A DNA stretch of 64,000 bases from Rhodanobacter denitrificans (lineage in GTDB: Bacteria > Pseudomonadota > Gammaproteobacteria > Xanthomonadales > Rhodanobacteraceae). Below are positions 8,901-45,206 of the stretch, one piece after another (the first letter of the stretch is position 1; every line of letters starts with the position of its first letter). The stretch spans positions 3,844,001 to 3,908,000 of the forward strand of contig NC_020541.1 of the NCBI RefSeq assembly GCF_000230695.2. Direction: 5' to 3'. The notes under the pieces were generated by a model, which had not been told where the DNA came from, made no database searches, and saw only the letters and a list, made by a program, of their open reading frames with translations. Made by a program: the position numbers and the translations under genes.

Positions 8901-8909
8901 GGCAAATCC

Positions 8910-9191: not shown

Positions 9192-9202
9192 GGCTTATAG
9201 TG

Positions 9203-9217: not shown

Positions 9218-9270
9218 TGGCGCAAGCGCCGATGACTCGCGATATCCCATGGCGCGCTGCGCGCCAGCGG

Positions 9271-12596: not shown

Positions 12597-12871
12597 CGTC
12601 GATTCTTGGGCTGGGTGATGCGCCTGGGCGCTTGCGCCACGGGCATGGTCAAGGCGGCTCCATTCTCGACGCGAGAGGCACGTGGTGGAAACCGCCCGAT
12701 GCCACCCATTCTCCGCGATCACGGAAGAACTGTCGCTTGTCGGCCATCTACGGTGGATCGGACGACATGGCCTTGCACGCCGCGCACGCGTATCCCGCAT
12801 GCCCCTGATGAAGCCCGCGACGAATATCCACTGATTCGGAGGATGCACCTCCGGCGAGGAAGTGGCGAAAA

Positions 12872-12948
12872 TGGTGCGCCCGGCGGGATTCGAACCCACG
12901 ACCCCTGCCTTCGGAGGGCAGTACTCTATCCAGCTGAGCTACGGGCGC
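12872..12948 (-). tRNA. tRNA-Arg (anticodon CCG)
   Basis: The minus strand folds as a complete tRNA. The acceptor stem GCGCCCG pairs with CGGGCGC, the D arm has GCTC/GAGT, the anticodon stem CTGCC/GGCAG encloses loop CTCCGAA giving anticodon CCG, and the T arm contains GGTTCGAATCC. CCA is encoded at the 3' end. It reads the Arg codon CGG. Its 3' end points at the restriction cassette, the usual geometry for an island inserted at a tRNA gene, although no integrase is present. Confidence 0.97.
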
Positions 12949-13056
12949 ATTTAGGGCCGCGCGGAGCTGTGGCCGGAGGCCGGCACCGCGGGGTACGCAG
13001 TATAGCCGAGTTGCCGCCGCGGAGTGGACGGACCGCCGCCGGCGGCGGAAACGCGA

Positions 13057-13087
13057 GCGGCCCTCCCGAACGGTGCCGGGAGGGCCG
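13057..13087 (-). terminator. Strong hairpin after the M61 peptidase gene
   Basis: An 11-base perfect GC-rich stem (GCGGCCCTCCC / GGGAGGGCCGC) with a 10-base loop lies just after the M61 stop codon. It probably ends that transcript before the tRNA. The T content after it is low. Confidence 0.6.
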
Positions 13088-13100
13088 CTGCAGGCTTGCC

Positions 13101-30220: not shown

Positions 30221-30922
30221 CTATATGGCCCAATGCCATGTTGATCCGTGAATGATGCGGTCGCCATGCTTAGACCAGCGGTAGCGCTTCCACATTAACT
30301 GCTTCGGATCACCGCCAAATTTCGCTTCATCGTGAAGACGTGCAAATGCTTCATCCGTGATCCAAGTCCGCTCCGCCAAATTCAGGTCGGTGAGTTTCGC
30401 AGCATAGTTCGCCGCACGCCCTACCCATACGATGTCATTGCCGCCACGAACGCCCGTACGTGCAGCCCGGATGGGGCTGGTGTCAATCCCTACTACCTGC
30501 TTCACCTCACCACCCCATTCAGGGTATTGCTGCTTCAGCGCAGGATTGACGATCTTCTGGACTGCATAGTTGATCTTCAAAGCCGCAATCGCGGCGGGTG
30601 TAGTTTGGCGGCTCCCTACCCAAATCCCCATGACGCGATCGCCATCATAAGATGTGATCTTGCCACCTTCTGCTCTAATGATGGTCGCCGCGCAATGTAG
30701 GAAGGCCTTGTAGACTTCTGCGCTAAGCTGCCAGTTTTCCGTGTCGACCATGTTCGTCGATCCTTGAAGGTCTGCGTAGAGAACGGTCGCTAGATCGAAT
30801 TCGACGGCATCATTGCCGAGCCTTAGGTCCTCGGGGTCGGGAACGACTTGACCTTGTCGCTTGTTCCAGGCGCTCCGCGCAATGGTCTGCACGGCTTCCT
30901 TCATGTCATCCAATAGCGACAT
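30221..30922 (-). CDS. pycC: Pycsar pyrimidine cyclase (class III nucleotidyl cyclase)
   Basis: The 233-residue cytoplasmic protein is a single class III cyclase catalytic domain. ATVLYADLQGSTNMVD gives the first metal Asp (D51), GGKITSYDGDRVMGIWVG the second (D95), and WVGRAANYAAKL the conserved region following the transition-state residues. It has no sensor domain. In Pycsar systems such a cyclase makes cCMP or cUMP on phage infection; which base is used here cannot be read by eye. It starts 2 bases after the stop codon of the TIR effector gene, so the two are one operon. Its DNA is clearly more A/T-rich than the flanks, suggesting transfer. Confidence 0.88.
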   Translation of the reverse strand: MSLLDDMKEAVQTIARSAWNKRQGQVVPDPEDLRLGNDAVEFDLATVLYADLQGSTNMVDTENWQLSAEVYKAFLHCAATIIRAEGGKITSYDGDRVMGIWVGSRQTTPAAIAALKINYAVQKIVNPALKQQYPEWGGEVKQVVGIDTSPIRAARTGVRGGNDIVWVGRAANYAAKLTDLNLAERTWITDEAFARLHDEAKFGGDPKQLMWKRYRWSKHGDRIIHGSTWHWAI

Positions 30923-30924
30923 CG

Positions 30925-31845
30925 TTAATCTCTCGGACCAGCTTCCAGGATTCGTGCCCGGATCTGTTCGCAGGCGGGTGCCAGAAAGGCACGGGCGTCG
31001 GGGCCTTTGACGTAGCGATACGGCACAGTGGTCAACCCCGCCAAATCGCTCGGTAGCTTTAACTTATCCTCGCGCGGCTCCATCAGAAAGGCGCGCTTGC
31101 GGCCTAAGAAACCAATGAACATGCCCAATTCAAAGACTACGTTGTCGCGCATCGCTGGCCATTCGTCGCTGCGGCTAATTACCATGTCGTCAGCATGCGC
31201 TACAGCAATGGCGAAATCAGCCTGTTCCAACTGGCGCTCGAGTTCTTCTAGAGTGTAGTTCGAAGCTCGAAAAACCCCCTGATCCCAAACCACGGTTAGG
31301 AAGGGATCGTGTTCGAAGTGCTGAACAAGCAGACGCGTTACGGGCAAGGCCTCAACGGACGACATCACGAATACCCGCACTTGCTCTCGCGCATGGGCGA
31401 TCATTGAGTTGCGCTCTAAGAGCCGCCGCGACAGCGTTGCGGCCATGCGTCTCCAGATCACAGGGTTCGCATCGGCGAATTTGATGAAGTCGCTGTCAGA
31501 GATTTTCAGGAGAACGCACGATTCCCGTGCGGTGATAGTCGCCGAGCGGAGCTGTGCCGGTTCGATGACAGCCATCTCGCCCACATGATCTCCGACCCTG
31601 CGAGTATTGACCATCTTGCCGTTGACGATGACGTTTACCGACCCTGCGACAATGAAAAACACATCAGTCTGTGAATCATTTTGGGTAATAAACGACTCGC
31701 CCGCTGCAACTTCCAAGAGCTCACCTACCTCGGCGAGGCACGCGGGGACTCCGGCCAATCCCGCCAAGAGGCGGAATTCGGACAACGCCTCGATCAGCCG
31801 TTTACCGCCCTCAGCGGCAAATCGTTCTACCAGCCGTGTTCCCAC
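30925..31845 (-). CDS. pycTIR: Pycsar effector: cyclic-nucleotide-binding domain plus TIR
   Basis: The 306-residue protein has a cyclic-nucleotide-binding domain at about 40-140 (phosphate-binding cassette GEMAVIEPAQLRSAT, E90 and R100). A CAP12/Pycsar-type TIR domain at about 156-300 contains VRVFVMSSVEALPVTRLLV, YTLEELERQLEQADFAIAV and RDNVVFELGMFIGFLGRK with the expected catalytic Glu E239. Known PycTIR effectors degrade NAD+ once cCMP/cUMP binds, killing or stalling the infected cell. The GTG start at 31845 follows AAAGGGGG at good distance; the ATG further upstream has no such site. A TATATT box lies about 30 bases upstream on the minus strand. Confidence 0.9.
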   Translation of the reverse strand: MGTRLVERFAAEGGKRLIEALSEFRLLAGLAGVPACLAEVGELLEVAAGESFITQNDSQTDVFFIVAGSVNVIVNGKMVNTRRVGDHVGEMAVIEPAQLRSATITARESCVLLKISDSDFIKFADANPVIWRRMAATLSRRLLERNSMIAHAREQVRVFVMSSVEALPVTRLLVQHFEHDPFLTVVWDQGVFRASNYTLEELERQLEQADFAIAVAHADDMVISRSDEWPAMRDNVVFELGMFIGFLGRKRAFLMEPREDKLKLPSDLAGLTTVPYRYVKGPDARAFLAPACEQIRARILEAGPRD

Positions 31846-32383
31846 GGTCGCCCCCTTTGAAAGCGTGATGTGCACCCAAATATACGCCGAAAGTATGCCT
31901 ATCTCGGAACCGGCCGGCGCAGCGCAAAGGGCGCTGCGGCCCACTCTGGCTCAACAACACGTACTGCTCCTCACGAAGGTCTGCTGTTGGCCGATAGCCA
32001 GCCGTCTTAGCAGCACCATGCCACTCTCCCAATTGAACGTTTGGCGTCTCGGCTCTTCCGCTCTCGCAACCGCGCAGCGGTTGCGCACCGAGTGCGGGCC
32101 GGAACCGCCCGCCGCCCTTTCCTTCGCCGGTGGGCGCCTGAAGAACCAGAGCTTTCGTACACTTGCGGCGCACGAAAGCTCTTCGCTTCGAACTACCAAC
32201 CAGAGCGATCAAGAGTATCGCCCGCGAGCGGGCTCCTACAACGAGATCCCGAGGTGGTTGCCGCAGGCAGACGAAAGCTCTCGGCGACACCTGGGCACGT
32301 GGGCACGTGGGAAGAACGAGCTCCCAGCCTTGGGCGGCCACCACCAGCCTACCGCCTGAATCGGCAAGAGCACCGCAGGTGCC
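31846..32383. other. Intergenic region with repeat fragments beside the Pycsar module
   Basis: No gene is supported in these 538 bases. It holds the likely Pycsar promoter (TATATT near 31878, minus strand). It also holds inverted AGAGCTTTCGT / ACGAAAGCTCT arms near 32148-32182, a further copy of ACGAAAGCTCT near 32270, and a solo arm of the CCCGCGAGCGGGC repeat near 32220. The mixture of fragments suggests repeated small insertions at this edge of the module. Confidence 0.5.
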
Positions 32384-33277
32384 CTACCGGATCAGCACCA
32401 ACACCGTGACGATCGCCAGCAGCGCCAGCGGATACAGGCTGGCGCGGTCGAACAGGCGCGCGGCCTGGCGGCCGTCCAGCGTGCGCGCGAGCCCTATCGC
32501 CGGCGGCAGCAGCAGGCCGGCGCCGGCGGCGAGGATGGCGAACTGGAACGGCCAGCCGCCCGCCAGCGGCGACAGGCGCGGCAGCAGTGCGCTGGCCAGC
32601 ACGGTCAGGCCCAGGCTGATCGCCACCAGCACGCTGGCGGTGCGCAGGCCAAGGACCAGCGGAATGGTGCGCGCGCCGATGCGACGGTCTTCCTCGATGT
32701 CGTTCCAGTCGGCCGGGATGTTCTGCCCGCCGATTTCCCACAGCATCAGCCAGACCAGCATCCCCAGCAGCCCCGACCACGGCGGCGCGGGGATCACCGC
32801 GAACACGGCGGCGACCGGGCCGGCCGACTTGACCAGGCCGCTGACCACGGTGCGCCACCAGGTGACCTTCAGCAGCTTGACGTAGAGCACCTCCAGCGCC
32901 GCCGCGGCGAATACGATGAGCAGGATCTTCGGGTTCAGCAGCCAGGTGCCGAGCACGGCCAGCGCGAACCAGCAGCCGAACCACGCCAGCGCGCCCTTCA
33001 TGCTGATCAGGTTCTGCGCCAGCGGGTAGCGCATGGCGGACGCCTCCACCGCGTAGCCGGGGGTGATCCCGCCGGCGACCTTTTCCTGGTCGTCCTTCAC
33101 CCCGATCAGGTCGTTCAGCGCGTAGATGGCCGTATAGCCGGCCAGCGCCGTCGCCAGGCACAGCGCCAGTATCCGCCACGACGGGAAATGCCCCAGCCAC
33201 AGCAGCGCGACGAAGCCGGGCATGGCGATGTCGAGCACGCCGTGGACGGAACGCGACAAGGCTAGGAAACGTCGCAT
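32384..33277 (-). CDS. UbiA superfamily prenyltransferase in the cyclase/LuxS cluster
   Basis: The 297-residue protein has about eight to nine membrane helices and both Asp-rich prenyl-diphosphate motifs: NDLIGVKDD at 55-63 and ADWNDIEED near 205. It should attach or transfer a prenyl-type chain from a diphosphate donor to an acceptor in the membrane. The true UbiA for ubiquinone is at 57913-58842, so this copy probably has another acceptor. It starts 5 bases after the UbiG-like stop codon and is the last of five overlapping or abutting genes on this strand. Confidence 0.85.
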   Translation of the reverse strand: MRRFLALSRSVHGVLDIAMPGFVALLWLGHFPSWRILALCLATALAGYTAIYALNDLIGVKDDQEKVAGGITPGYAVEASAMRYPLAQNLISMKGALAWFGCWFALAVLGTWLLNPKILLIVFAAAALEVLYVKLLKVTWWRTVVSGLVKSAGPVAAVFAVIPAPPWSGLLGMLVWLMLWEIGGQNIPADWNDIEEDRRIGARTIPLVLGLRTASVLVAISLGLTVLASALLPRLSPLAGGWPFQFAILAAGAGLLLPPAIGLARTLDGRQAARLFDRASLYPLALLAIVTVLVLIR

Positions 33278-33282
33278 GGGGT

Positions 33283-33993
33283 TCAGCCCTTCCTGGCGAA
33301 GCAGGCCATGTAGTTGATGTCGGCGCGGTCCGGCGCAACGCGGAAGCGGCGCGTGAGCGGGTTGTACATCAGGCTGTCCACCGCCTTGAACTCGAGCCCC
33401 GCCGCGCCGGCCCACGCGCGCATCTCCGCCGGCCGGATCAGCTTGCGGTAGTGGTGGGTGCCGCGCGGCAGCAGGCCGAGGATGTACTCGCCGGCCACGA
33501 TGGCGAAGGCGAACGCCTTGAACGTGCGGTTGATGGTGGAGAAGAACGCCACGCCGCCCGGCTTGAGCAGGGCGGCGCAGGCGGCGATGACCTGCGCCGG
33601 CTGCGGCACGTGCTCGAGCATCTCCATGCAGGTGACCGCGTCGAAACGGCCGGCTTCCTCGCGGGCGAGCGTTTCCGCATCGAGCTCGCGGTAATCGATG
33701 GCCAGCCCGCCGCGCTCGGCATGCTGGCGGGCGATGTCCAGCGACAATCGCGACAGGTCGATGCCGGTCACCTGTGCGCCGCTCCGGGCCAGCGCCTCGG
33801 CCAGGATGCCGCCGCCGCAGCCCACGTCGACGACGCGCGGCGCGCTCACGCCGATGCGGTCGGTGATGAAGCGCAGGCGCAGCTCGTTGATCGCGTGCAG
33901 CTGGCCCATCTTGCCGTGCGGGTCCCACCACAGCTGCGCGATGCGGTTGAAGTGGGCGATTTCCGCGGCATCAACGTTCGGCGATTCGGTCAT
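33283..33993 (-). CDS. UbiG-like class I SAM methyltransferase
   Basis: The 236-residue protein has the SAM-binding motif VVDVGCGGGILAEAL at about 54-68, the acidic GIDLS, and CMEMLEHVPQP. Its start, NVDAAEIAHFNRIAQLWWD, and the region KPGGVAFFSTINRT match UbiG O-methyltransferases. Location inside a cluster with a sugar-phosphate cyclase and a second UbiA-like enzyme suggests a specialised O-methylation rather than, or as well as, ubiquinone synthesis. It overlaps the end of the cyclase gene by 23 bases, so the two are probably translated together. Confidence 0.82.
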   Translation of the reverse strand: MTESPNVDAAEIAHFNRIAQLWWDPHGKMGQLHAINELRLRFITDRIGVSAPRVVDVGCGGGILAEALARSGAQVTGIDLSRLSLDIARQHAERGGLAIDYRELDAETLAREEAGRFDAVTCMEMLEHVPQPAQVIAACAALLKPGGVAFFSTINRTFKAFAFAIVAGEYILGLLPRGTHHYRKLIRPAEMRAWAGAAGLEFKAVDSLMYNPLTRRFRVAPDRADINYMACFARKG

Positions 33994-35122
33994 GGTCTGT
34001 CGTGGTCCGGTCATGCAACGTCTGGATGGAGGCTTCGATTTCCGCGCGCGCGATGTCGTTGACGAACGTGCATTCGCCGACCGCCGCGGGCAGCGGCACG
34101 CGCTGCAGGCCGTTGCGGTGTTCGACGCGATCGAGCAGCGATTGCCACATGAGTTCGGCGTCGAGCAGGGCGAGGTCGGGGGCGAGGCCGAGATGGTCGA
34201 CCACGGCGAAGATCCGTTCGGCCGCGGCCGCGCCGAGCAGGCTGCGGCGCCGCGCGATCGCGGTCGACACCAGGATGTCCAGCAGCACCGCCTCGCCGTG
34301 CAGAAGGTCGTCCCCGTGGCGGGTTTCCAGGCCATAGCTGAAGGTGTGGCCGAAGTCGACCTTGCGCGCCAGCTCTTCCTCGTGCAGGTTCGGCGCCAGC
34401 TCTTCGAGCATGCCGCCGATCGCACGGTCGAGGATGTCGCCGCCGCGCGCGTCCTGGAACGCCGTCGCCAGCGAGGCCGCGCCGTGTTGCTCCAGCAGGC
34501 GGAACAGCGCGGCGTCCCTGATCACGGCCAGCTTGACGATCTCGCACAGGCCGTTGCGCAGGTGGCGCGGCGACAAGGTGCGCAGCAGGCTGCGATCGAG
34601 CAGCACCCGGCGCGGCGGCTCGAAGTTGCCCAGGCGGTTCTTGTGGCCGTTGAAATTGATCCCGGTCTTGATTCCCACCGCGGCGTCGACGTAACCCATC
34701 AGCGTGGTCGGCACCTTGATGTGCGGCACCCCGCGGCGGTAGCTGGCCGCCGCGTAACCGACCACGTCGGTCAGCACGCCGCCGCCGATGGCGATGACCG
34801 GCTCGTCGCGGCGATGGATCGGAAAGCCGTCCAGCTCGCGCAGCACCGAGAGCCAGGCCTCCAGCGTCTTGCCGCCCTCGCCGCCCGGCAGAGTGATGAT
34901 GCGGGCATCGACCCGGTGCTGCGCGAAGTAGGCGCAGATGCGTGCGCCGTGATGCGCGTGCACGCAGGCGTCGACCACCACGAAACGGCGCCCGTCCTGC
35001 ACGCGCCCCATCGACAGCAGCGCGTCGCTGCGCGGGTCGAACACGTCGGCCACGTTGAGCAGGTCGTACTCGATCCGGCGCGTGGCGCTGACCTGCCAGT
35101 GCGTGCCCGGCGCGGTGCTCAT
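33971..35122 (-). CDS. Sugar-phosphate cyclase (EEVS/AroB superfamily)
   Basis: The 383-residue protein is an NAD-dependent cyclase of the dehydroquinate synthase fold. Zinc ligands are expected at E194 (NGLCEIVK), H259 (FGHTFSYG) and H275 (HGEAV). The segment VPTTLMGYVDAAVGIKTGIN, then GHKNRLG and FEPP, resembles sedoheptulose-7-phosphate cyclases such as 2-epi-5-epi-valiolone synthase, rather than true dehydroquinate synthase (which has GGKTGVN and GKN-IG). The expected product is a C7 cyclitol, made in the cytoplasm; the exact class is not certain. It overlaps luxS by four bases and the methyltransferase gene by 23. Confidence 0.82.
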   Translation of the reverse strand: MSTAPGTHWQVSATRRIEYDLLNVADVFDPRSDALLSMGRVQDGRRFVVVDACVHAHHGARICAYFAQHRVDARIITLPGGEGGKTLEAWLSVLRELDGFPIHRRDEPVIAIGGGVLTDVVGYAAASYRRGVPHIKVPTTLMGYVDAAVGIKTGINFNGHKNRLGNFEPPRRVLLDRSLLRTLSPRHLRNGLCEIVKLAVIRDAALFRLLEQHGAASLATAFQDARGGDILDRAIGGMLEELAPNLHEEELARKVDFGHTFSYGLETRHGDDLLHGEAVLLDILVSTAIARRRSLLGAAAAERIFAVVDHLGLAPDLALLDAELMWQSLLDRVEHRNGLQRVPLPAAVGECTFVNDIARAEIEASIQTLHDRTTTDHDRIAER

Positions 35123-35601
35123 GCCACGTCCCGCCACGCCGAGCGCTGCGCCAGCACCTCGCGCGCGACGGCCTGGGCGCGGGCCAGGTCGTGGTGGCGC
35201 CAGTGGCCGCACTGGTCGACGCGCGCATACGGCACGGCGTCGGCCGCGAGCACGCCTTTCAGGATGGTTTCGAGCGCGTCCTCGATGACGGCACGCCGGC
35301 CTTCGCCGAGCAGGGTGAGATAGAAGCCGGTCTGGCAACCCATCACGCCGATGCCGACGAAATGCCGCGGCAACAGGCGCCCGTAGCCTTCGAGCAGGAA
35401 ATGCTCGATCGAATGCAGTTCGGTGCTCGACAGGCAGGCGTCGGCGTTCGGCCGGCGCAGGCGCAGGTCGACGGTGTAGACGATGTCGCCCGCAGCTCCC
35501 GCATGGACGCCGCGCAGCTTGACGCTGGGCGCCTTCAGCCGGCGGTGGTCCAGTTCGCCGACGGTATCGCTCGACCAGCCCAGTGCCTCGAAGTCGATCA
35601 T
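35119..35601 (-). CDS. luxS: LuxS family S-ribosylhomocysteine lyase
   Basis: The 160-residue protein keeps every LuxS catalytic residue. HSIEH gives metal ligands H63 and H67 and base E66, MGCQTGFYL gives catalytic C89, and DQCGHWRHHDL gives the third metal ligand C131. LuxS splits S-ribosylhomocysteine into homocysteine and DPD, the autoinducer-2 precursor. Its position, ATGA-overlapped with a C7-cyclase gene and followed by a methyltransferase gene, is unusual: luxS is normally with methionine-cycle genes. No pfs gene is adjacent. It may recycle SAH from the local methyltransferase or supply a C5 building block. Confidence 0.9.
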   Translation of the reverse strand: MIDFEALGWSSDTVGELDHRRLKAPSVKLRGVHAGAAGDIVYTVDLRLRRPNADACLSSTELHSIEHFLLEGYGRLLPRHFVGIGVMGCQTGFYLTLLGEGRRAVIEDALETILKGVLAADAVPYARVDQCGHWRHHDLARAQAVAREVLAQRSAWRDVA

Positions 35602-35632
35602 GGTGATTGCTCGGTGGAACGGCCGGGTGCGC

Positions 35633-36874
35633 TCATGCCGGCTGCGCGATCGCGGCCAGGTGGCGGTAGCTGTCGTCGAGGGCCTGCTGCCAGCCCTCGA
35701 CGTGGTGGTAGAGCTCGACCGAGCCGAAGCCGTCGAAGCCGTGCGCGTTCAGCGCATCGAAACTCGCCGCCAGGTCCAGCGTGCCCTCGCCGGGAATCTC
35801 GTGGAAGTGCACGATGCCGGTGCGCGTGTTGGCGACCATCCGCTCGAACAGCGCCGGACCGCGCACGCCGCGCAGGTGGGCGACGATCGGCCAGGCCCGT
35901 TCGAGCACGTCGAAGCTCAGCCCCGGCACCGAGATCAGGTAGGTGAAGATCTCGTCGTCCAGCGGCGAAGCACCGGCGTACAGGCTGCCGTAATCGACCA
36001 TGCCTGCCGGCCGGTCGATGCCGGCCTGCGCCAGCAGGGCGTCGATGCGCCGGCGCCGCGCCGGGTCGGGCGCGCGGTCGGCGAAGTACAGCGGATGGCG
36101 GCGATCCACCAGCAGGTAGTCCGCCGTCTCGGGAAAATAGACCAGGGTGCTGGCGGCATCCAGGTCGAAGCCCGCCACCGCATCGTCCCGCACGATCCTG
36201 AGGTTGCGGCCCTCGCGCGCATCGGAGATGTGCAGGTAGCGGGCGAACGGCGCCGCCTGCGCCAGCGCGCCGGTGTAGTCCGGTTCCGAGCAGTAGGCGT
36301 GGCAGATGTCGATGTGCAGCGCGAAGCGCGGCGAGCCGACCGCGCGGATCAGCGCCAGCCCCTGCGCCAGGGTCTCGATGTACATGCCGGGCTCGGGCTC
36401 GATCAGCAGCGTGATGTCCTCATCGTCGCGGATCTCGCGCAGGCATTCGCGGATGCTGTCGGCCAGCAGCTCGCCCGGATCGGCGGCCGCCTCGCGCACG
36501 TGCTCGTCGCGCAGGAAGCCGCTGCCGAAAGTGACCAGCTTCACGCCCAGCCGGCGGGCCACGCGGATGCCGCGCTTGACCAGGTCGATGCGGCGCTTGC
36601 GTCCGGCCACGTCCAGCGTCAGCAGCGACGGTTCGTGCGGCCGCGACGGGGTGAAGAAGTGCGAGGCGGTGGCTACGCAGGCCGGTACGATCCGCGCCGC
36701 GTCCAGCCGCGCGCGCACGGCATCGAGGTCGGCCTCGCCGAGGTTGAAGGGATTGAACTGGTCGCGGTGGAAGGACAGCTCGACCCCGGCGTAGCCGGCC
36801 CGGGCCACCGCGTCGATCGCCTCCAGAAACGGCAGATTGGTGAGGCCGAAGGTGCTGTAGCTGAGCTGGATCAT
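35633..36874 (-). CDS. TIM-barrel sugar isomerase/epimerase-like protein
   Basis: The 413-residue protein starts as a xylose-isomerase-like TIM barrel (MIQLSYSTFGLTNLPFLEA and GYAGVELSFHRD). Putative metal ligands are E159 in LLIEPEPG, D189 and H192 in LHIDICHAYC, and H215 in YLHISD. It is longer than ordinary family members (about 280 residues) by a C-terminal part that ends with FGSVELYHHVEGWQQAL. A similar TIM-barrel partner occurs in ebo clusters beside cyclase and UbiA-like genes, but I cannot claim orthology. It is the first gene of the five-gene minus-strand cluster. The start at 36874 lacks a clear ribosome-binding site. Confidence 0.72.
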   Translation of the reverse strand: MIQLSYSTFGLTNLPFLEAIDAVARAGYAGVELSFHRDQFNPFNLGEADLDAVRARLDAARIVPACVATASHFFTPSRPHEPSLLTLDVAGRKRRIDLVKRGIRVARRLGVKLVTFGSGFLRDEHVREAAADPGELLADSIRECLREIRDDEDITLLIEPEPGMYIETLAQGLALIRAVGSPRFALHIDICHAYCSEPDYTGALAQAAPFARYLHISDAREGRNLRIVRDDAVAGFDLDAASTLVYFPETADYLLVDRRHPLYFADRAPDPARRRRIDALLAQAGIDRPAGMVDYGSLYAGASPLDDEIFTYLISVPGLSFDVLERAWPIVAHLRGVRGPALFERMVANTRTGIVHFHEIPGEGTLDLAASFDALNAHGFDGFGSVELYHHVEGWQQALDDSYRHLAAIAQPA

Positions 36875-37154
36875 GCCCGGAAGCCGTGGTGAGCAAGCGG
36901 TGGATGGATATCCCCCGCAGCGTGCGGGCGCGGCGCCACGCTTGCCATGACCCACGTCAAATCGCGCCCGCCGACGCCTGCGTACGGATGCCGCAGTGCG
37001 CTGCAGCCGGCGGCAAGAGCGCGCTGCCGGCGCGCTCGCACCGGTCACGGCAGGGCCACGGCGCCCCGCCGGGACGGAAGAAAGAGCAAGAGCGGACCCC
37101 GCCCCCCTGCGAGCAGGCAGGGAGTAACGCCGACGACGCCGAAACGCCGGCTGC

Positions 37155-38438
37155 TCAGTCGACCGGCGTGTTGCGGTAGGTGCCGACGTCGGCCGGTTGC
37201 ACCGCAGCGGCCTGGTTCGACCACGACTGGCGGATGTAGCCGACCACCGCGGCGACGTCCTCGTCGTTCAGCTGCTGCGCGAACGGCGGCATCGAGTACG
37301 GCTGCGGGTTGCCGGCGGTGGCCGGGGCGAAGCCGCCGAGCAGCACGCTGCGGATCGCGTTGATGCCGGTCGGTTCGGTCACCGAGGTATTGCCGTCCAG
37401 CGGCGGGTAGGTGCCGGCCACGCCACGGCCGTCCTTGCCGTGGCAGTCGGCGCAGTGCTGCGCGTAGAGCTTGCCGCCCTGCGCGTGGCTGGCCGCCTGC
37501 ACGAACGGAACCGCTGCCGCCGGCGCGCGCGGCGGCAGCGATTGCAGATAGACGGCCACCGCCTGCAGGTCGGCGTCGCGCAGGTGCTGGGTGCTCAGGC
37601 GCACCACGTCGGCCATCGGCCCGAACGCGGTGCCCTTGGCCGACTGGCCGGTCTTCAGCAGGTCGACGATGTCCTGCGCGCGCCAGCCGTCGAGGCCGCC
37701 GCCGGCCTGCGTGCTGAGGTCCGGCGCGTACCAGTCCAGCTGCGGGATCTGGCCGCCGGTGAGGTGGCGGTCCTGCTCGATGCCGCCCAGCGAATCGCGC
37801 GTGCTGTGGCATTCGTTGCAGTGGCCCAGGCCCTGCACCAGGTAGGCGCCGCGGTTCCACTGTTCGGACTTCGTCGGGTCGGGCCGGTACTCGCCCGGCT
37901 TGAAGTACAGCGCGCGCCACGCGACCAGGCTGCTGCGCACGTTGTAGGGAAACTCCAGCCCCAGCGCCGTGTCGGGCCGCTGCACCGGCGGCAGCGACTT
38001 CAGGTAGGCGAAGATCGCCAGCGCGTCGTCGCGGCTCACCTTGGTGAACGAGGTGTAGGAGAACACCGGGTACAGCAGTTCGCCCCGGCGGCCCTTGCCT
38101 TCGTGCAGCGCGCGCCAGAAATCGTCGAAGCTCCACTGGCCGATGCCGGTATCCGGATCGGGCGTGATGTTCGGCGCCGGCACGTCGCCGAACGGCGTGC
38201 CCAGCGAACGGCCGCCGGCGTAGCGCTGGCCGTCGCGCGCGGTGTGGCAGGCAGCGCAATCGCCGGCCGTGGCCAGGTATTCGCCGCGCGCGATCAGCGC
38301 CGGGTCGCGCAGCGCGGCGGCATCCGCCGCGCGCTGCGCGGGCGAGGCGACCGGCTGGCCATGGCCGAGGTACCACCAGCCCAGCACCGCCACCACCAGC
38401 AATGCCGGCACCCACCAGCCATGTCGCCGCCATGTCAT
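37155..38438 (-). CDS. Triheme cytochrome c, membrane-anchored
   Basis: The 427-residue protein has one N-terminal membrane anchor (WWVPALLVVAVLGWWYLG) and three CXXCH haem sites (CAACH, CNECH, CADCH). Each is followed by a Met-containing region, for example SMPPFAQQLNDEDVAAVVGYI in the last. This matches cytochrome subunits of alcohol/gluconate-type dehydrogenases, but no dehydrogenase gene is adjacent. It should carry electrons in the periplasm. Its start overlaps the stop codon of the diheme cytochrome gene by four bases. Confidence 0.9.
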   Translation of the reverse strand: MTWRRHGWWVPALLVVAVLGWWYLGHGQPVASPAQRAADAAALRDPALIARGEYLATAGDCAACHTARDGQRYAGGRSLGTPFGDVPAPNITPDPDTGIGQWSFDDFWRALHEGKGRRGELLYPVFSYTSFTKVSRDDALAIFAYLKSLPPVQRPDTALGLEFPYNVRSSLVAWRALYFKPGEYRPDPTKSEQWNRGAYLVQGLGHCNECHSTRDSLGGIEQDRHLTGGQIPQLDWYAPDLSTQAGGGLDGWRAQDIVDLLKTGQSAKGTAFGPMADVVRLSTQHLRDADLQAVAVYLQSLPPRAPAAAVPFVQAASHAQGGKLYAQHCADCHGKDGRGVAGTYPPLDGNTSVTEPTGINAIRSVLLGGFAPATAGNPQPYSMPPFAQQLNDEDVAAVVGYIRQSWSNQAAAVQPADVGTYRNTPVD

Positions 38439-39211
38439 CGATCCGCTCCGCTCTTGCCCATCACGCACCAGCCCGGCAACGGTTCGGTCTGCGCGCTGGC
38501 CGGTGCCGGATGCATGTCGGCCGGCGGCTCGTGGCTGGCCAGCCACGCGGACACGGCGGTGATGTCCGATTCGCGCATGCGATTGGCGACCACGCCCATG
38601 CAGTACGGCCCTTCGGCCGCGCGCTGGCGCGTGCGCCACGACACCAGCTGAGTGTCGAGATAGTCGTACGACAAGCCCATCAGGCCCGGCATCATCGGCT
38701 CCACGCCGGTGAGTCTGGCGCCGTGGCAGCTGACGCACGACGGTACGCCGCGGGTGGAGTCGCCGCGCAGCACCAGTTGCTCGCCGCGCCGCAGGGTGTC
38801 CGCGGACACCGCCGGCACCGGCAGTTTCCGGTACGGCACGTCCTGCTTCGCGAAGTAGCCGGCGATGTCGCGCAGGTACGCCGGGCCCAGCTGGCGCACC
38901 ACGTATTCCATCGGTGCGTGCCGGCGCTGGCCGCTCTGGAAATATTCCAGCTGTTGCAGCAGATAACCCGCCGGCTTGCCGGCCAGGCGAGGGATCGCCA
39001 CGCTGTCCGGCGAACCCTCGCCATGCGCACCGTGGCAGCTGGTGCAGGCGGCCACGCGTTGCTGCATGGTGTCGGGTATCGCCGGGGCGGCGCCGGCCTG
39101 CGGCGGCGTGGCGGCCATCGGCGCATGGCCCATGCCGAGCGCAAGCAACGCAAAAGCCGCACGCGGCGCCTGTCTGCACAGCCGCCGGCGCAGTGAAACG
39201 AACCTGTTCAT
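38435..39211 (-). CDS. Diheme cytochrome c (c4-like)
   Basis: The 258-residue protein has a signal peptide (about residues 1-33) and two CXXCH sites (CTSCH and CVSCH), each in a separate c-type domain. The wording PRLAGKPAGYLLQQLEYFQSG is typical of cytochrome c4/c553 families. It is the upstream partner of the triheme cytochrome gene. Candidate roles are electron delivery to an oxidase or to a periplasmic reductase such as the NirK fusion at 62 kb; the latter is speculation. It is divergent from the threonine operon. Confidence 0.88.
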   Translation of the reverse strand: MNRFVSLRRRLCRQAPRAAFALLALGMGHAPMAATPPQAGAAPAIPDTMQQRVAACTSCHGAHGEGSPDSVAIPRLAGKPAGYLLQQLEYFQSGQRRHAPMEYVVRQLGPAYLRDIAGYFAKQDVPYRKLPVPAVSADTLRRGEQLVLRGDSTRGVPSCVSCHGARLTGVEPMMPGLMGLSYDYLDTQLVSWRTRQRAAEGPYCMGVVANRMRESDITAVSAWLASHEPPADMHPAPASAQTEPLPGWCVMGKSGADR

Positions 39212-39326
39212 CCGGCGGATTGTAGGCCGGTCGACCGGCACCGGCCGGCGCCAACCGGCGTGCCGCGACAACCTGCCGCAGGTGCGGCGACCTGCGCCCG
39301 CCGCTTGAAAGTTGCAGATGCATCTG

Positions 39327-39356
39327 TTGACCGCAGTGCAACATCCGCCTTAAGGT
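39327..39356 (+). promoter_or_regulatory. Promoter of the threonine operon
   Basis: TTGACC (39327-39332) and TAAGGT (39351-39356) are separated by 18 bases, and the leader-peptide ATG follows TAAGGT by 7 bases. The leucine leader at 43269 has exactly the same spacing. TAAGGT may serve as the -10 box, which would make the leader peptide mRNA leaderless; alternatively, AAGG is a ribosome-binding site and the promoter lies further upstream. Confidence 0.5.
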
Positions 39357-39363
39357 CGAGCCC

Positions 39364-39513
39364 ATGTCGCCGCTTTCCATGCCAGCACGCACGCACCTCG
39401 CCCCGGTCTTCGCCGGGCGTGCGCCGTTGCCGGCCGGCGGCGTCAACCGCCCCGCCACCACCACCACGACCACCATTACCACTCGGTCGGGGTGGGTGTC
39501 CGTGCGCGACTAG
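39364..39513 (+). CDS. thrL: Threonine operon leader peptide
   Basis: The 49-residue reading frame ends shortly after a run of nine regulatory codons (codons 32-40: six Thr, Ile, two Thr), the same amino acids that control E. coli thrL. It sits 104 bases before the homoserine dehydrogenase gene, with alternative RNA helices overlapping and following the run. A scarcity of charged tRNA-Thr or tRNA-Ile would stall the ribosome here. The sequence before the run has no recognisable function. An internal ATG at 39379 is an alternative start. Confidence 0.82.
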   Translation: MSPLSMPARTHLAPVFAGRAPLPAGGVNRPATTTTTTITTRSGWVSVRD

Positions 39514-39556
39514 GTTCTTCACCACGCAACGGCCCCGCCCTCGACCGAGGCGGGCC
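39482..39556 (+). promoter_or_regulatory. Threonine attenuator (competing helices)
   Basis: A GC-rich hairpin at 39531-39556 (arms 39531-39542 and 39547-39556 with two single-base bulges) competes with a long helix in which 39482-39492, at the end of the Thr codons, pairs with 39539-39549 over 11 positions (one G-U). The two cannot coexist. The hairpin lacks a T-run after it, so the terminating form may be weak or Rho-assisted. The pairings are read directly; the mechanism is inferred from E. coli thr. Confidence 0.55.
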
Positions 39557-39617
39557 GGTGCACTCCCCAAGCACACGCCGATCCGCCAGCGAGCACGGGC
39601 CTCACCAGGAGGTCATC

Positions 39618-40763
39618 GTGAACATCTGTGCGTCCCCACTTGCCGAGCTGCCGCCCGCATCCGGTTTCGCCGCGGCGGGCAGGCGGCGGCAGCGCGTGCT
39701 GGCCGTCGGCGTGATCGGCCCCGGCCGGGTCGGCAGTGCCTTGCTCGAACAGCTGCGTGCCGCGCAGCCGCGGCTGCTGCGCGACAGCGCGCTGGAACTG
39801 AAGCTCTGCGGCGTGGTGGCCAGCAAGCGCATGTGGCTGGACTGCGACGACACCGAGCTCAACGGCCGCCACGGCGGCGCGCAGATCTGGCGGCCGAACG
39901 ACCTGGACGCGTTCGCCGGGCACGTGCGCGGCAGCGATGGCCGGCATGCGCTGCTGATCGACTGCAGCGCGAACGACGAGGTGGCCGCACGCTACCCGCG
40001 CTGGCTGGCCGCCGGCCTGCACGTGGTGACCCCGAACAAGCTGGCCGGCAGCGGCCCGCTGTCGCGCTGGCAGGCGATCCGCGCCGCCTGCGCCGGCGGC
40101 GCGCGCTTCCGCTACGAGGCCACCGTGTGCGCCGGCCTGCCGGTGGTGCAGACGCTGCGCGACCTGCTCGACACCGGCGACGATCTGCTCGCGGTCGACG
40201 GCATGTTCTCCGGCACGCTGGCCTGGCTGTGCAACCGCCACGACGGCCGCCAGCCGTTCTCCGCGCTGGTGCGCGAGGCGCATGCGCTGGGCTATACCGA
40301 GCCCGACCCGCGCGACGACCTGTCCGGGCTCGACGTGGCGCGCAAGCTGGTGATCCTGGCGCGCGAGGCCGGCCGGGCCCTGTCGCTGGAAGACGTCGAC
40401 CTGCAAAGCCTGGTGCCGCCCGCACTGGCCGCGTTGCCGCTGGACGACTGCATGCGGCGGCTCGACGAACTCGATGCGCCAATGGCGGCGAAACTGGCCG
40501 AGGCGCGTGCCGAAGGCGGCGTGCTGCGCCACGTGGCGCAGCTGGACCGGCACGGCCGCGCCAGCGTACGGCTGCTGGTGCTGCCCGCGTCCCACGCGTT
40601 CGCGCACACCCGCCTCACCGACAACATCGTGCAGTTCAGCACCCGCCGCTACTGCGATAATCCGCTGATCGTGCAAGGCCCCGGCGCCGGCCCGGAGGTG
40701 ACCGCCGCCGGCGTGTTCACCGACCTGCTGCGCATCGCCGAATCGCTGGAGGCGCGCGCATGA
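39618..40763 (+). CDS. hom: Homoserine dehydrogenase (monofunctional, short)
   Basis: The 381-residue protein reduces aspartate semialdehyde to homoserine, the branch point to Thr, Ile and Met. The Rossmann motif [13 protein letters not shown] is at 31-43. [36 protein letters not shown] and the catalytic-domain signature [25 protein letters not shown] follow. It resembles the homoserine dehydrogenase half of bifunctional ThrA but has no aspartokinase domain and no ACT domain, so feedback control by threonine may be lost or moved to transcription. GTG start: AGGAGGT stands 4 bases before it, the best ribosome-binding site in the region. Confidence 0.93.
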
Positions 40764-41755
40764 ACTCCTCCCTGCTGGAACCCGTCATGGCCGCACCGCG
40801 CACTGCCAAACATCCACAAGTCGCCTGCGCGTTCGCGCCGGCCAGCGTCGGCAACGTCGGCGTCGGCTTCGACCTGCTCGGCCACAGCGTGGCCGGCGCC
40901 GGCGACCGCGCCGAAGTGCGCCGCATCGACGAGCCGGTGGTGCGCATTGCCGCCATCCGCGGCTGCGTCACCGACCTGCCCACCGACCCGCGCGCGAACA
41001 CCGCCGGCACCGCGCTGCTTTCGCTGCGCAAGGCGCTCGGCTTGCGCCACGGGTTCGAGCTGACCCTGCACAAGGGCATCGCGCTGGGCTCGGGCATGGG
41101 CGGTTCGGCGGCCTCGTGCGTGGCAGCGCTGATCGCCGCCAATGCGCTGCTGCCCAGGCCGCTGCCGCGCGAGGCGCTGTACGGCTTCGCGCTGGACGGC
41201 GAAGCAGTGGCCAGCGGCAGCCGCCACGGCGACAACCTCGGCTCGATGCTGCTCGGCGGCCTGGTGCTGGCCACCCACGAACGCCTGCTGCGCATCGAGG
41301 TGCCGGCCGCATGGCACTGCGCGCTGGTGCATCCGCACGTGGTGCTGGAGACACGCACGGCGCGCGCGGCGCTGGCCGGCCACTACGCGCTGGGCGAGTT
41401 CGTGGCGCAGAGCGCGAACCTCGCCCTGGTGCTGGCCGGCTGCTGGCGCGGCGATGCTTCGCTGGTGCGTGAAGGCCTGAAGGACGTGCTGGTGGAACCG
41501 CGCCGCGCGCCACTGATCCCGAACTTTGCCCGCGTGAAGCAGGCCGCGCTCGACCACCACGCGCTCGGTGCCAGCATCTCCGGCGCCGGCCCCAGCGTGT
41601 TCGGCTGGTACGACCACCGCGCCGACGCCGAGGCGGCCAGCATGGCGATGCGCGCCGCGTTCGCCGAGGGCGGGCTGGACAGCGACGCCTGGGTGTCGCC
41701 GATCGACGGACCCGCTGCCGCCTTGATCGCCTCGCTCGACGAGGCCTTGCCATGA
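40760..41755 (+). CDS. thrB: Homoserine kinase
   Basis: The 331-residue protein is a GHMP kinase that phosphorylates homoserine for threonine synthesis. It has the N-terminal [20 protein letters not shown], the ATP-binding loop [20 protein letters not shown], and the C-terminal motif [14 protein letters not shown]. The start codon overlaps the hom stop codon (ATGA). A palindromic repeat fills the gap to thrC. Confidence 0.95.
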
Positions 41756-41769
41756 ACGCACGCCCTGCA

Positions 41770-41859
41770 GGAGCGCACCCTGTCCACAAGGGTCTTCCCT
41801 CGGTCGTGCGCGATGCCTTTGCTGCACGCCAGGCAGAACTCGCGCACAGGGTGCGCTCC
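41770..41859. repeat. Palindromic repeat between thrB and thrC, 'GCGCACCCTGT' family, copy 2
   Basis: GGAGCGCACCCTGT (41770-41783) and ACAGGGTGCGCTCC (41846-41859) are perfect 14-base inverted arms. The same core occurs at 1236-1296. Its position inside a transcribed operon gap suggests effects on mRNA stability rather than termination. Confidence 0.7.
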
Positions 41860-41875
41860 CGCAGAGGTGGCGACC

Positions 41876-43186
41876 ATGCGTGAACCACTGCGTTATCACA
41901 GCACGCGCAGCAGCACGGAAACCGTGCCGCTCGGCCAGGCGATCGCCGCCGGGCTGGCGCCGGACGGCGGCCTGTACGTGCCCGAAGCCCTGCCGCGACT
42001 CGACCCGGCCGCGTTCGATCCGCGCGGCAGGCTGGCCGACACTGCGGCCACCTTGCTGGCGCCGTTCTTCGCCGGCGACGTGCTGGCCGACGCACTGCCC
42101 GCGATCTGCGCCGAGGCGCTCAGCTTCGACACGCCGCTGCGCGCCCTGCCGGCGCATCCGCACGCGGCGATGCTGGAGCTGTTCCACGGCCCCACCTCGG
42201 CCTTCAAGGACATCGGCGCACGCTTCCTCGCCGCCTGCCTGCGCCGGCTGCCGCGCCGCGATGCGCGGCCGCTGACCATCCTGGTCGCCACCTCCGGCGA
42301 CACCGGCGCCGCGGTGGCCGCCGCGTTCCACCGCCAGCCGAACGTGCGCGTGGTGATCCTGTATCCGGACGGCTTGGTCTCGCCGCGCCAGGCACACCAG
42401 CTCGGCTGCTTCGGCGACAACGTCACCGCGCTGCGCGTGGCCGGCCGCTTCGACGACTGCCAGCGCATGGTCAAGGCCGCGCTCAACGACGCGGCACTGC
42501 AGGCGGATGTGCCGCTGTCCTCGGCCAACAGCATCAGCCTCGGCCGCCTGCTGCCGCAGATGAGCTACTACGCGCACGCCGCGCTGGGCTGGTGGCGCGA
42601 ACACGGCACGCCGCTCAACTTCATCGTGCCCACCGGCAATCTCGGCAACGCGCTGGCCTGCCTGTGGGTGCGCGAACTGGGCCTGCCGGTCGGCGAGGTG
42701 CGGCTGGCCTGCAACGCGAACGCCACCCTGCCCGAGTTCTTCGCCGGCGCCGACTATCGCCCGCGCGAAGCCATCGCCACTCTCGCCAACGCGATGGACG
42801 TCGGCGCGCCCAGCAACTTCGAGCGGCTGCGCTGGACCTTCCCGAATGAATCCGCGTTGCGCCAGCTGCTGCAAGCGCACAGCGTGGACGACGCCACCAT
42901 CCGCCACACCATCGCCGCTCACGCCCGCGAGCACGGCGAGCTGTTCTGTCCGCACACCGCCACCGCAATGCACCTGCTCGACCGCCTGCGCGCGGAGGGC
43001 GACACGGCGCCATGGGCGGTGGTCGCCACCGCGCATCCGGCCAAGTTCGAGAACGTGGTGGCGCCACTGCTCGACCACCCGCTCGCCGTGCCCCCCGCGC
43101 TGGCCGCGATGCTGGCACGCGGCGCTAGTGCCGAACCGCTGGCGGCCAGCGAGATCGCCCTGCGGAGCCGGCTGCTGCTCTCGTGA
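41876..43186 (+). CDS. thrC: Threonine synthase
   Basis: The 436-residue PLP enzyme converts O-phosphohomoserine to threonine. PLP-binding Lys is K111 in FHGPTSAFKDIGARFL, and the phosphate-binding LVATSGDTGAAVAAAF, PTGNLGNALACLW and the late SVDDATIRHTI segment agree with the E. coli-type ThrC. AGAGGTGG precedes the ATG at 41876. The gene ends the thr operon; no terminator is seen before the leucine promoter. Confidence 0.95.
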   Translation: MREPLRYHSTRSSTETVPLGQAIAAGLAPDGGLYVPEALPRLDPAAFDPRGRLADTAATLLAPFFAGDVLADALPAICAEALSFDTPLRALPAHPHAAMLELFHGPTSAFKDIGARFLAACLRRLPRRDARPLTILVATSGDTGAAVAAAFHRQPNVRVVILYPDGLVSPRQAHQLGCFGDNVTALRVAGRFDDCQRMVKAALNDAALQADVPLSSANSISLGRLLPQMSYYAHAALGWWREHGTPLNFIVPTGNLGNALACLWVRELGLPVGEVRLACNANATLPEFFAGADYRPREAIATLANAMDVGAPSNFERLRWTFPNESALRQLLQAHSVDDATIRHTIAAHAREHGELFCPHTATAMHLLDRLRAEGDTAPWAVVATAHPAKFENVVAPLLDHPLAVPPALAAMLARGASAEPLAASEIALRSRLLLS

Positions 43187-43225
43187 AATATTCCGCGTCT
43201 CGCCCGGCAAGACCGTCTGGACATC

Positions 43226-43235
43226 TGGACGTCCA
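43226..43235. promoter_or_regulatory. Palindrome upstream of the leucine promoter
   Basis: TGGACGTCCA is a perfect 10-base palindrome. The preceding GTCTGGACATC repeats the TCTGGAC word, giving tandem 8-base units loosely like MetJ boxes (AGACGTCT). It lies 33 bases upstream of the predicted -35 box, where a regulator could act. The protein is unknown. Confidence 0.25.
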
Positions 43236-43268
43236 AAGCAGGCCGATCGACGATTTCAAACGAAACTG

Positions 43269-43298
43269 TTGACGCCGCCACACGAAGTGCCCTAAGGT
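43269..43298 (+). promoter_or_regulatory. Promoter of the leucine/isoleucine/valine operon
   Basis: TTGACG (43269-43274) and TAAGGT (43293-43298) are 18 bases apart, and the leader ATG follows 7 bases later. This is the same geometry and the same TAAGGTCG word as the threonine promoter 3.9 kb upstream. Confidence 0.5.
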
Positions 43299-43305
43299 CG
43301 GTCAC

Positions 43306-43443
43306 ATGTCGCAGCGCAGCAACCATTGCCGCATCGCCGAAATGAACCGTCTCGCGACGGTCGACGGCCTGCTGCAGCTCGGCGGCACGCTCCTTATTAC
43401 CCTCGTACTCGTACTCCTTATTACCAACGGAGGTGCGGGCTGA
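43306..43443 (+). CDS. Branched-chain amino-acid operon leader peptide
   Basis: The 45-residue leader peptide carries a dense regulatory run TLLITLVLVLLIT at codons 28-40: Leu, Ile, Val and Thr, the end products and precursor of the operon that follows. The run is written with codons uncommon in this G+C-rich DNA (CTT, ATT, GTA twice each), which would sharpen stalling when the tRNAs are uncharged. It ends 108 bases before leuA, and the attenuator hairpins begin within its last codons. A second in-frame ATG (43342) has a poorer context. Confidence 0.88.
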   Translation: MSQRSNHCRIAEMNRLATVDGLLQLGGTLLITLVLVLLITNGGAG

Positions 43444-43522
43444 GGGCATGTGTCCAGGTAAATAAGAAAACCTGAAAACACCCGAAGAACCCCGCACCCG
43501 GTAACGGATGCGGGGTTTTTTT
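43432..43522 (+). terminator. Leucine operon attenuator: antiterminator and intrinsic terminator
   Basis: The terminator arms 43488-43496 and 43509-43517 (AACCCCGCA / TGCGGGGTT, with an inner CCG-GTAA-CGG) are followed by seven T. The alternative helix pairs GGTGCGGG (43432-43439, in the last leader codons) with CCCGCACC (43491-43498), eight perfect pairs that destroy the terminator. A ribosome finishing the leader peptide covers 43432-43439, allowing termination; one stalled in the Leu/Ile/Val run leaves it free, giving read-through. Confidence 0.85.
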
Positions 43523-43551
43523 GTGCCTTCGGCGCCGCCCACAGCGGAGCC

Positions 43552-45206
<1,655 letters not shown>

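What the first reader, a model, noticed from the sequence alone, without database searches (positions are those of the whole stretch)
32384..36874. Five-gene cluster joining LuxS to a C7-type sugar cyclase, a methyltransferase, a second UbiA enzyme and a TIM-barrel isomerase
Seen: five minus-strand genes with overlaps of 4 and 23 bases and gaps of 31 and 5 bases, so one transcription and translation unit. Known: EEVS-type cyclases with methyltransferases make cyclitol products such as gadusol; UbiA enzymes prenylate; ebo clusters pair a cyclase, a UbiA-like enzyme and a TIM barrel. LuxS with all catalytic residues intact inside such a unit is not something I know from any described pathway. 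Inference: the operon may make a methylated, prenylated cyclitol or quinone-like membrane compound, with LuxS either recycling SAH-derived S-ribosylhomocysteine or supplying the C5 unit DPD.
Basis: partly seen in the sequence, partly recalled or inferred. Interest (0 to 1): 0.85.

Follow-up and report, generated by a model that had tools for sequence, protein, structure and literature searches.

The report
Five-gene operon with repurposed LuxS
Five genes that stay together in Rhodanobacter-type soil bacteria and in Chloroflexota appear to turn a seven-carbon sugar into a fat-soluble compound, using a relative of the quorum-sensing enzyme LuxS that seems to have lost its usual job.

Summary
The order TIM barrel - LuxS - cyclase - UbiG - UbiA is intact in 24 of 25 loci read (10 in the window's genus, 2 in another family of its class, 12 Chloroflexota). 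The exception, Desulforadius, has TIM and LuxS fused beside the cyclase; 30 of 120 listed database hits are such fusions, all TIM first. The cyclase lies with S7P cyclases, not AroB or EboD, and has the EEVS letter at 17 of 17 columns separating EEVS from DDGS. LuxS keeps metal and catalytic residues but not others fixed in ordinary LuxS (Asp78 and Lys35 in 0 of 73 rows). Of 20 hosts tested, 19 have SahH and 1 has the nucleosidase that makes the LuxS substrate over cut-off. So this LuxS is probably not an AI-2 or methionine-cycle enzyme. Most likely product, inferred: a prenylated, O-methylated compound from 2-epi-5-epi-valiolone, perhaps a quinol made without oxygen. One paper lists these genes as neighbours of nirS (PMC8756737, passages).

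The parts
35633..36874 (-). Gene 1: xylose-isomerase-like TIM barrel (PF01261), 413 aa, with an extra stretch at roughly residues 225-350; predicted metal-dependent keto-sugar/cyclitol epimerase, isomerase or dehydratase
35119..35601 (-). Gene 2: divergent LuxS family protein, 160 aa; metal ligands H63, H67, C131 and catalytic E66, C89 kept; residues at B. subtilis positions 6, 35, 61, 65, 78 changed
33971..35122 (-). Gene 3: sedoheptulose-7-phosphate cyclase, EEVS-like, 383 aa; metal ligands E194, H259, H275
   Evidence: Best PDB match 4p53 (ValA) 323 bits, then 5tpr 249 and 3okf 143; tree; 17 of 17 columns EEVS-like, metal ligands in 25 of 25
33283..33993 (-). Gene 4: UbiG-family O-methyltransferase, 236 aa, one of two copies in this genome
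   Evidence: TIGR01983 259.5 bits, cut-off 102.95; 48.9% identical to E. coli UbiG; the other copy is at G000:C1:1303130-1303783
32384..33277 (-). Gene 5: UbiA-superfamily membrane prenyltransferase, 297 aa, own subgroup; first motif NDLxGxxxD, second DWNDxxED
   Evidence: PF01040 93.6 bits; all matched NCBIfam UbiA-type models below their cut-offs; 24-row alignment
36947..36960 (-). Crp/Fnr-type palindrome TTGACGTGGGTCAT, starting 86 bases before the TIM-barrel start codon (possible anaerobic control; Fnr assignment recalled)
   Evidence: One mismatch to TTGAYNNNNRTCAA; perfect sites 85 bases upstream in L097 and L098; five other one-mismatch sites lie elsewhere in the window (6 found, 1.70 expected)

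Best explanation
The five genes are one co-inherited, probably horizontally spread biosynthetic operon. Step 1: the cyclase turns sedoheptulose 7-phosphate into 2-epi-5-epi-valiolone (EEV) or a close C7 cyclitol ketone (sequence inference). Steps 2 and 3: the TIM barrel and the LuxS-like protein act one after the other on this C7 ketone. Both are predicted metal enzymes of the enediol type; they are adjacent or fused in every locus read. The TIM barrel would epimerise, isomerise or dehydrate; the LuxS-like protein would do the LuxS reaction type, a carbonyl shift and beta-elimination, without homocysteine (inferred). Removing two waters from EEV (C7H12O6) gives C7H8O4, a trihydroxybenzyl alcohol, with no redox step and no O2 (my arithmetic). 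Steps 4 and 5: UbiA attaches a prenyl chain and UbiG O-methylates the prenylated catechol (inferred from the UbiG family). The product would be a membrane compound like a methoxylated hydroquinone. The LuxS-like protein is not an AI-2 synthase.
For: Gene order intact in 24 of 25 loci of two phyla; the same 10 of 45 genus genomes hold TIM and LuxS; 30 fusions among 120 listed hits (one is Desulforadius itself), all TIM-LuxS; pairwise distances of the five proteins correlate, Spearman 0.75-0.92 over 24 loci, no null model run. Cyclase: 25-row clade 100/100 on the EEVS/DDGS side, apart from 8 EboD and 4 AroB; EEVS letter at 17 of 17 columns, metal ligands in 25 of 25. LuxS: H11, D37, R39, H54, E57, H58, C84, C126 kept in 43 of 43 cluster rows and 30 of 30 fusions, D78 and K35 in 0 of 73; PMC4618692 (passages) says that the S. 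suis Asp76, which I equate with D78, contacts the substrate and that Ser6 matters. In 20 of the 25 host genomes: SahH in 19, MTA/SAH nucleosidase over cut-off in 1. UbiG: the only copy in 12 of 12 Chloroflexota hosts, one of two in 7 of 7 hosts of the window's class.
Against: No chemistry was measured. The nearest folds of the TIM barrel are ketose 3-epimerases, not dehydratases, so aromatisation is a guess. UbiA has Gly for the second Asp of the usual first motif in 24 of 24, so it may prenylate an alcohol or use another donor. Desulforadius has TIM-LuxS and the cyclase but no UbiG or UbiA match within the 20 kb read and no UbiG in the genome, so methylation and prenylation by these enzymes are not universal. 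One host (G530) has the nucleosidase over cut-off (its pieces joined) and 7 more have weaker matches; the model is over cut-off in 7 of 14 control genomes, and wider nucleosidase families were not searched. The cyclase tree does not resolve whether the clade is nearer EEVS or DDGS and carries long-branch warnings; 9 of the 17 EEVS-like letters are also the commonest letter of EboD or AroB.
Confidence: 0.53

Rival explanations
1. The product is a prenylated, methylated non-aromatic cyclitol (an ebo-like or ether-lipid-like membrane compound): UbiA alkylates a hydroxyl, and the TIM barrel and LuxS-like protein only epimerise or isomerise the ring.
For: TIM barrel closest to ketose 3-epimerases; UbiA first motif atypical; Streptomyces ebo-type clusters pair a TIM barrel 35% identical over 227 aa with a prenyltransferase and a gene annotated inositol-3-phosphate synthase; the ebo authors propose an isoprenoid-cyclitol product (PMC5133447, sections 3.4 and 3.7 read).
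Against: The methyltransferase is a UbiG by model score and shares 48.9% identity with E. coli UbiG; known UbiG substrates are prenylated catechols (recalled; the NCBIfam name agrees).
Confidence: 0.27
2. LuxS is an ordinary S-ribosylhomocysteine lyase placed beside UbiG to recycle SAH from its methylation.
For: Catalytic and metal residues intact; only LuxS-family match in the genome; weak nucleosidase matches in 7 of 20 hosts and one over cut-off.
Against: SahH in 19 of 20 hosts, nucleosidase over cut-off in 1 of 20 and no match in the window's genome; residues fixed in ordinary LuxS lost; fused to a sugar-isomerase-like domain in 30 listed proteins; present in Desulforadius, which has no UbiG match.
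Confidence: 0.07
3. LuxS supplies the C5 unit DPD, which becomes part of the product.
For: LuxS fold and catalytic residues.
Against: Same missing nucleosidase and lost residues as above; the operon has no obvious enzyme to join a C5 unit to the C7 ring (inference).
Confidence: 0.04
4. TIM barrel and LuxS-like protein act before the cyclase, remodelling a heptulose phosphate so that the cyclase makes a cyclitol other than EEV.
For: TIM barrel like sugar and sugar-phosphate 3-epimerases; the three-gene core exists without UbiG and UbiA.
Against: The cyclase carries EEVS letters at 17 of 17 columns, which argues for plain sedoheptulose 7-phosphate.
Confidence: 0.15

Closest known systems
ebo cluster (eboA-F)
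   Same: Pairs a sugar-phosphate cyclase, a UbiA-superfamily enzyme and a xylose-isomerase-like TIM barrel; proposed product an isoprenoid cyclitol (PMC5133447, sections 3.4 and 3.7 read). The extra TIM barrel of a Streptomyces ebo-type cluster is 35% identical over 227 aa.
   Different: No EboA, EboB or EboF among the five genes; cyclase in another group; no match to the EboC and EboE models, and the genome has no EboE; adds LuxS and UbiG.
[quoted passage not shown]
   Same: Same S7P-cyclase side of the tree, EEVS letters at 17 of 17 columns; best PDB match, 323 bits.
   Different: Separate clade supported 100/100; partners differ from the ROK-kinase genes beside the three plasmid EEVS-type genes.
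LuxS, S-ribosylhomocysteine lyase
   Different: Off the branch (99/97) that holds 21 of 21 canonical rows; residues at 6, 35, 61, 78 replaced; adjacent or fused to a TIM barrel; below every NCBIfam LuxS cut-off.
UbiG of ubiquinone biosynthesis
   Same: Above the TIGR01983 cut-off; 48.9% identical to E. coli UbiG, against 48.5% for the genome's other UbiG.
   Different: Sits in this operon; the only UbiG in 12 of 12 Chloroflexota hosts.
SURF MAG 42 nirS neighbourhood (PMC8756737, Table A1 passage)
   Same: Lists the same five gene names with consecutive protein numbers in the same order in a Chloroflexi MAG.
   Different: Listed as neighbours of an unusual nirS; in the passages shown by my term searches they are not discussed as a unit.

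Membership tests
S-ribosylhomocysteine lyase (LuxS, AI-2 synthase) | Metal ligands H54, H58, C126 and catalytic E57, C84 | tested here: met
   Kept in 43 of 43 cluster rows and 30 of 30 fusions (a few proteins occur twice)
S-ribosylhomocysteine lyase (LuxS, AI-2 synthase) | Residues S6, K35, D78, fixed in ordinary LuxS | tested here: not met
   D78 in 78 of 78 canonical, 0 of 73 here; K35 76 of 78 against 0 of 73; S6 78 of 78 against 2 of 73
S-ribosylhomocysteine lyase (LuxS, AI-2 synthase) | MTA/SAH nucleosidase in the genome to supply the substrate | tested here: not met
   TIGR01704: no match in the window's genome; over cut-off in 1 of 20 hosts, weaker in 7; wider families not searched
S-ribosylhomocysteine lyase (LuxS, AI-2 synthase) | Score over a curated LuxS equivalog cut-off | tested here: not met
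   10 models match, all below cut-off
S-ribosylhomocysteine lyase (LuxS, AI-2 synthase) | Cleaves S-ribosylhomocysteine | not testable with these tools
   Needs an enzyme assay
[quoted passage not shown]
[quoted passage not shown]
   17 of 17 columns from 4 EEVS and 2 DDGS rows, columns less than 90% uniform in the cluster not counted; the published 14-site fingerprint (PMC4426668, passage) was not available to me site by site
[quoted passage not shown]
   Needs an enzyme assay
3-dehydroquinate synthase (AroB) | Score over the aroB cut-off and place with AroB | tested here: not met
   204.3 bits against 305; outside the 4-row AroB group
ebo cluster | EboE and EboC by NCBIfam model | tested here: not met
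   No NF035939 or NF035940 match at E 0.001; control: the EboE model scores 424.7 on a Streptomyces EboE, the EboC model 125.7 on its prenyltransferase
ebo cluster | Cyclase in the EboD group | tested here: not met
   8 EboD rows form a separate 100/100 group
UbiG | Score over TIGR01983 cut-off | tested here: met
   259.5 against 102.95 bits
UbiG | O-methylates a prenylated catechol | not testable with these tools
   Blocks shared with E. coli UbiG in the alignment
UbiA superfamily prenyltransferase | First Asp-rich motif NDxxDxxxD | tested here: not met
   Gly at the second Asp in 24 of 24; second motif present. The motif is recalled; PMC9235831 gives DxxDxxxD for E. coli UbiA
UbiA superfamily prenyltransferase | Pfam UbiA score | tested here: met
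   93.6 bits, cut-off 34.2
Xylose-isomerase-like TIM barrel (PF01261) | Pfam score and metal ligands Glu/Asp/His/Glu | tested here: met
   128.6 bits; E159, D189, H215, E387 in 38 of 38; ligand roles recalled from ketose 3-epimerases

The most novel reading that the evidence does not exclude
This operon is an oxygen-independent route to a new isoprenoid quinone whose ring comes from a sugar phosphate and not from chorismate. The ring oxygens are those of sedoheptulose, so no hydroxylase and no O2 are needed. A LuxS-family enzyme that has abandoned S-ribosylhomocysteine carries out the aromatising isomerisation and elimination together with the TIM barrel. In some hosts an Fnr-type switch turns the operon on for anaerobic (denitrifying) growth.
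Probability: 0.2. Interest if true: 0.92.

Novelty: new variant of a known kind. Interest (0 to 1): 0.72.

Why it matters
LuxS is widely taken as the marker gene of AI-2 quorum sensing (recalled), and the database names shown here for this subfamily are S-ribosylhomocysteine lyase. A subfamily with intact catalytic residues and a different substrate would make such calls wrong in Chloroflexota, Rhodanobacter relatives and others, and would give LuxS a second chemistry. The operon also points to an undescribed membrane compound, built from a C7 sugar, shared between phyla. If the compound is a quinol, it bears on how oxygenated quinones can be made without O2.

Tried and rejected
Ordinary methionine-cycle LuxS: rejected on residues and on the nucleosidase. 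AroB and EboD identity of the cyclase: rejected by tree. EboC/EboE identity: rejected by NCBIfam. DDGS: disfavoured by 17 of 17 columns.

A search of plasmids with the cyclase and with the TIM barrel gave 112 and 36 records, all below 60% identity. The wide TIM-barrel searches sampled 369, 301 and 199 genomes, the fusion search 113 (only Desulforadius).

Anaerobic control, told with its misses. A palindrome with at most one mismatch to TTGAYNNNNRTCAA lies in the 300 bases before the TIM barrel in 10 of 25 loci (0.35 expected from single-base shuffles), but 9 of these 10 are in the window's genus and so not independent. It is absent at that stringency from L092, from both loci of the other family of the class, from 11 of 12 Chloroflexota and from Desulforadius. 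The pattern TTGAYNNNNRTCAW (one window match, 0.17 expected, 13 of 100 shuffles with one or more) was chosen after seeing the site. In the genus, narG is in 6 of 10 genomes with the cluster and 5 of 35 without (Fisher p 0.007), not corrected for kinship; G006, G025, G027 and G029 have the cluster and no narG match. No sigma-70 promoter was found by consensus scan in 32000-37400 and terminator-like hits were at chance level, 2 against 2.4.

Literature: ten searches of the open PMC library listed no paper whose title or abstract start describes this unit or a LuxS with another substrate; the only co-listing met is PMC8756737. Papers: PMC5133447 outline and sections 3.4 and 3.7; PMC9235831 passages and one section; PMC8756737, PMC4618692, PMC2929236, PMC5029033, PMC4426668 passages only; the rest listings only. 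Subscription journals are not covered. LuxS rows: the 43 cluster rows are 39 distinct by their last 140 residues, and the Desulforadius protein is both a cluster row and a fusion row; 77 of the 78 canonical rows were drawn by patterns that include MGC[QR]TGFY and [LI]EHFLLEG, which biases those columns. Labels from memory: 5tpr as the Anabaena DDGS, 3okf as V. cholerae AroB, which LuxS residues hold the homocysteine end, Fnr-type for the palindrome.
Full report
WHAT IS THERE. The window (Rhodanobacter by a 97% identical TIM-barrel protein of that name) holds five minus-strand genes at 32384-36874: TIM barrel, LuxS, cyclase, UbiG, UbiA, with gaps of 31, -4, -23 and 5 bases. Pfam and NCBIfam agree on the families. 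LuxS scores 113.8 bits against a cut-off of 208 in its best NCBIfam model, and the cyclase 204.3 against 305 for aroB, so both are outside those curated equivalogs; UbiG is inside its own (259.5 against 102.95).

IS IT A UNIT. A search with the LuxS family found it in 10 of 100 genomes (the window's own included), all among the 45 of the genus and none of 55 from other genera of the family and order. A search with the TIM barrel alone found the same 10 of 45. Over wider groups the TIM barrel was found in 3 of 369 genomes of the class (own included), 11 of 301 Chloroflexota and 1 of 199 of the phylum of Desulforadius. I read 25 loci: the window, nine of the genus, two of another family of the class, twelve Chloroflexota and Desulforadius. 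In 24 of 25 the five genes stand in the same order and strand. Between the proteobacterial and Chloroflexota loci the five proteins are on average 55-63% identical; their distances correlate over all pairs (Spearman 0.75-0.92) and less within Chloroflexota (0.37-0.72), with no null model. In the cyclase tree the 12 proteobacterial rows nest among Chloroflexota rows, as expected from transfer as a block, though not all deeper forks there are well supported.

THE FUSION. In Desulforadius tongensis TIM barrel and LuxS are one 592-residue ORF followed by the cyclase, with no UbiG or UbiA match within the 20 kb read; it is the only LuxS-family match of that genome. Of 211 hits to this protein at E 1e-20, 120 were listed; 30 of these 120 (Desulforadius itself included) carry both Pfam domains, and in 30 of 30 the TIM barrel comes first, as in the operon. 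Names among them include Zooshikella and a Legionellales MAG. Fused and unfused LuxS mix in the tree (5 label changes), which suggests more than one fusion or split. Neighbouring and fused genes in this order are good evidence for consecutive steps.

THE CYCLASE. Closest solved structures are 4p53 (ValA, 323 bits), 5tpr (249; recalled as the Anabaena DDGS) and then 3okf, a 3-dehydroquinate synthase (143). In a 44-row tree the 25 cluster cyclases form a 100/100 clade on the EEVS/DDGS side, away from 8 EboD and 4 AroB rows; whether they are nearer EEVS or DDGS is not resolved there, and long-branch warnings were given. At 17 columns where four EEVS rows agree, two DDGS rows agree on another letter and the cluster is at least 90% uniform, the cluster has the EEVS letter in 17 of 17; in 8 of these the letter also differs from the commonest one of both EboD and AroB. 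The three metal ligands are kept in 25 of 25. The EEVS rows other than ValA are assigned by annotation and neighbours, the Nostoc DDGS by its mycosporine-type neighbours (reading of the neighbours recalled).

MECHANISM. Shown: the genes, their conservation, the residues. Strongly inferred: EEV or a near relative as first product; LuxS-like protein not acting on S-ribosylhomocysteine. Inferred: TIM barrel and LuxS-like protein work on the C7 ketone by enediol chemistry, then prenylation and O-methylation. Speculative: loss of two waters to a trihydroxybenzyl alcohol and so a quinol whose oxygens come from the sugar. The palindrome and the narG association would suit an anaerobic role but are limited: the palindrome is found almost only in the genus, and 4 of 10 cluster genomes there lack narG.

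KNOWN OR NOT. The same five genes are listed once in print, as neighbours of nirS in a Chloroflexi MAG (PMC8756737, Table A1), without discussion in the passages shown. The nearest described systems are the ebo cluster and BE-40644 biosynthesis, where an EEVS and a UbiA-superfamily enzyme cooperate (PMC5133447, section 3.7). None of the searches named in Tried and rejected listed a paper on LuxS in such a unit.

Noticed in passing
window 30221-31944 minus: A Pycsar-type anti-phage pair directly downstream of the operon: PycC cyclase (PADLOC 347.6 bits) and a TIR effector (425.1 bits), in a 2-kb bin of 57% G+C against about 69-70% in the bins on either side.
   Followed up: partly
L135 4864-12048; L136 4975-12018: Streptomyces plasmid ebo-type clusters carry a gene annotated inositol-3-phosphate synthase and no annotated EboD-type cyclase in the stretch shown, plus an extra TIM barrel related to the window's (35% over 227 aa in L135): perhaps a different cyclase in the same kind of cluster.
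   Followed up: partly
P0241-P0293 (part), P0321: 30 TIM-LuxS fusion proteins among 120 listed hits, including Zooshikella and a Legionellales MAG; where a source names them the name includes LuxS; their gene neighbourhoods were not read.
   Followed up: partly
L013 8699-11748: Desulforadius tongensis has the TIM-LuxS fusion as its only LuxS-family match and a cyclase, without UbiG or UbiA nearby: possibly the minimal core.
   Followed up: partly
window 37155-39271 minus: Cytochrome c genes lie about 280 bases upstream of the operon on the same strand; the flank 36900-44000 is matched in 7 of 9 genus loci compared (L093-L099).
   Followed up: no
window 6001-14000: A stretch of lower G+C (61-65%) with a tRNA-Arg at 12872-12948, perhaps an island.
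   Followed up: no
window 39492-43186 plus: Homoserine dehydrogenase followed by ORFs that read by eye like homoserine kinase and threonine synthase.
   Followed up: no
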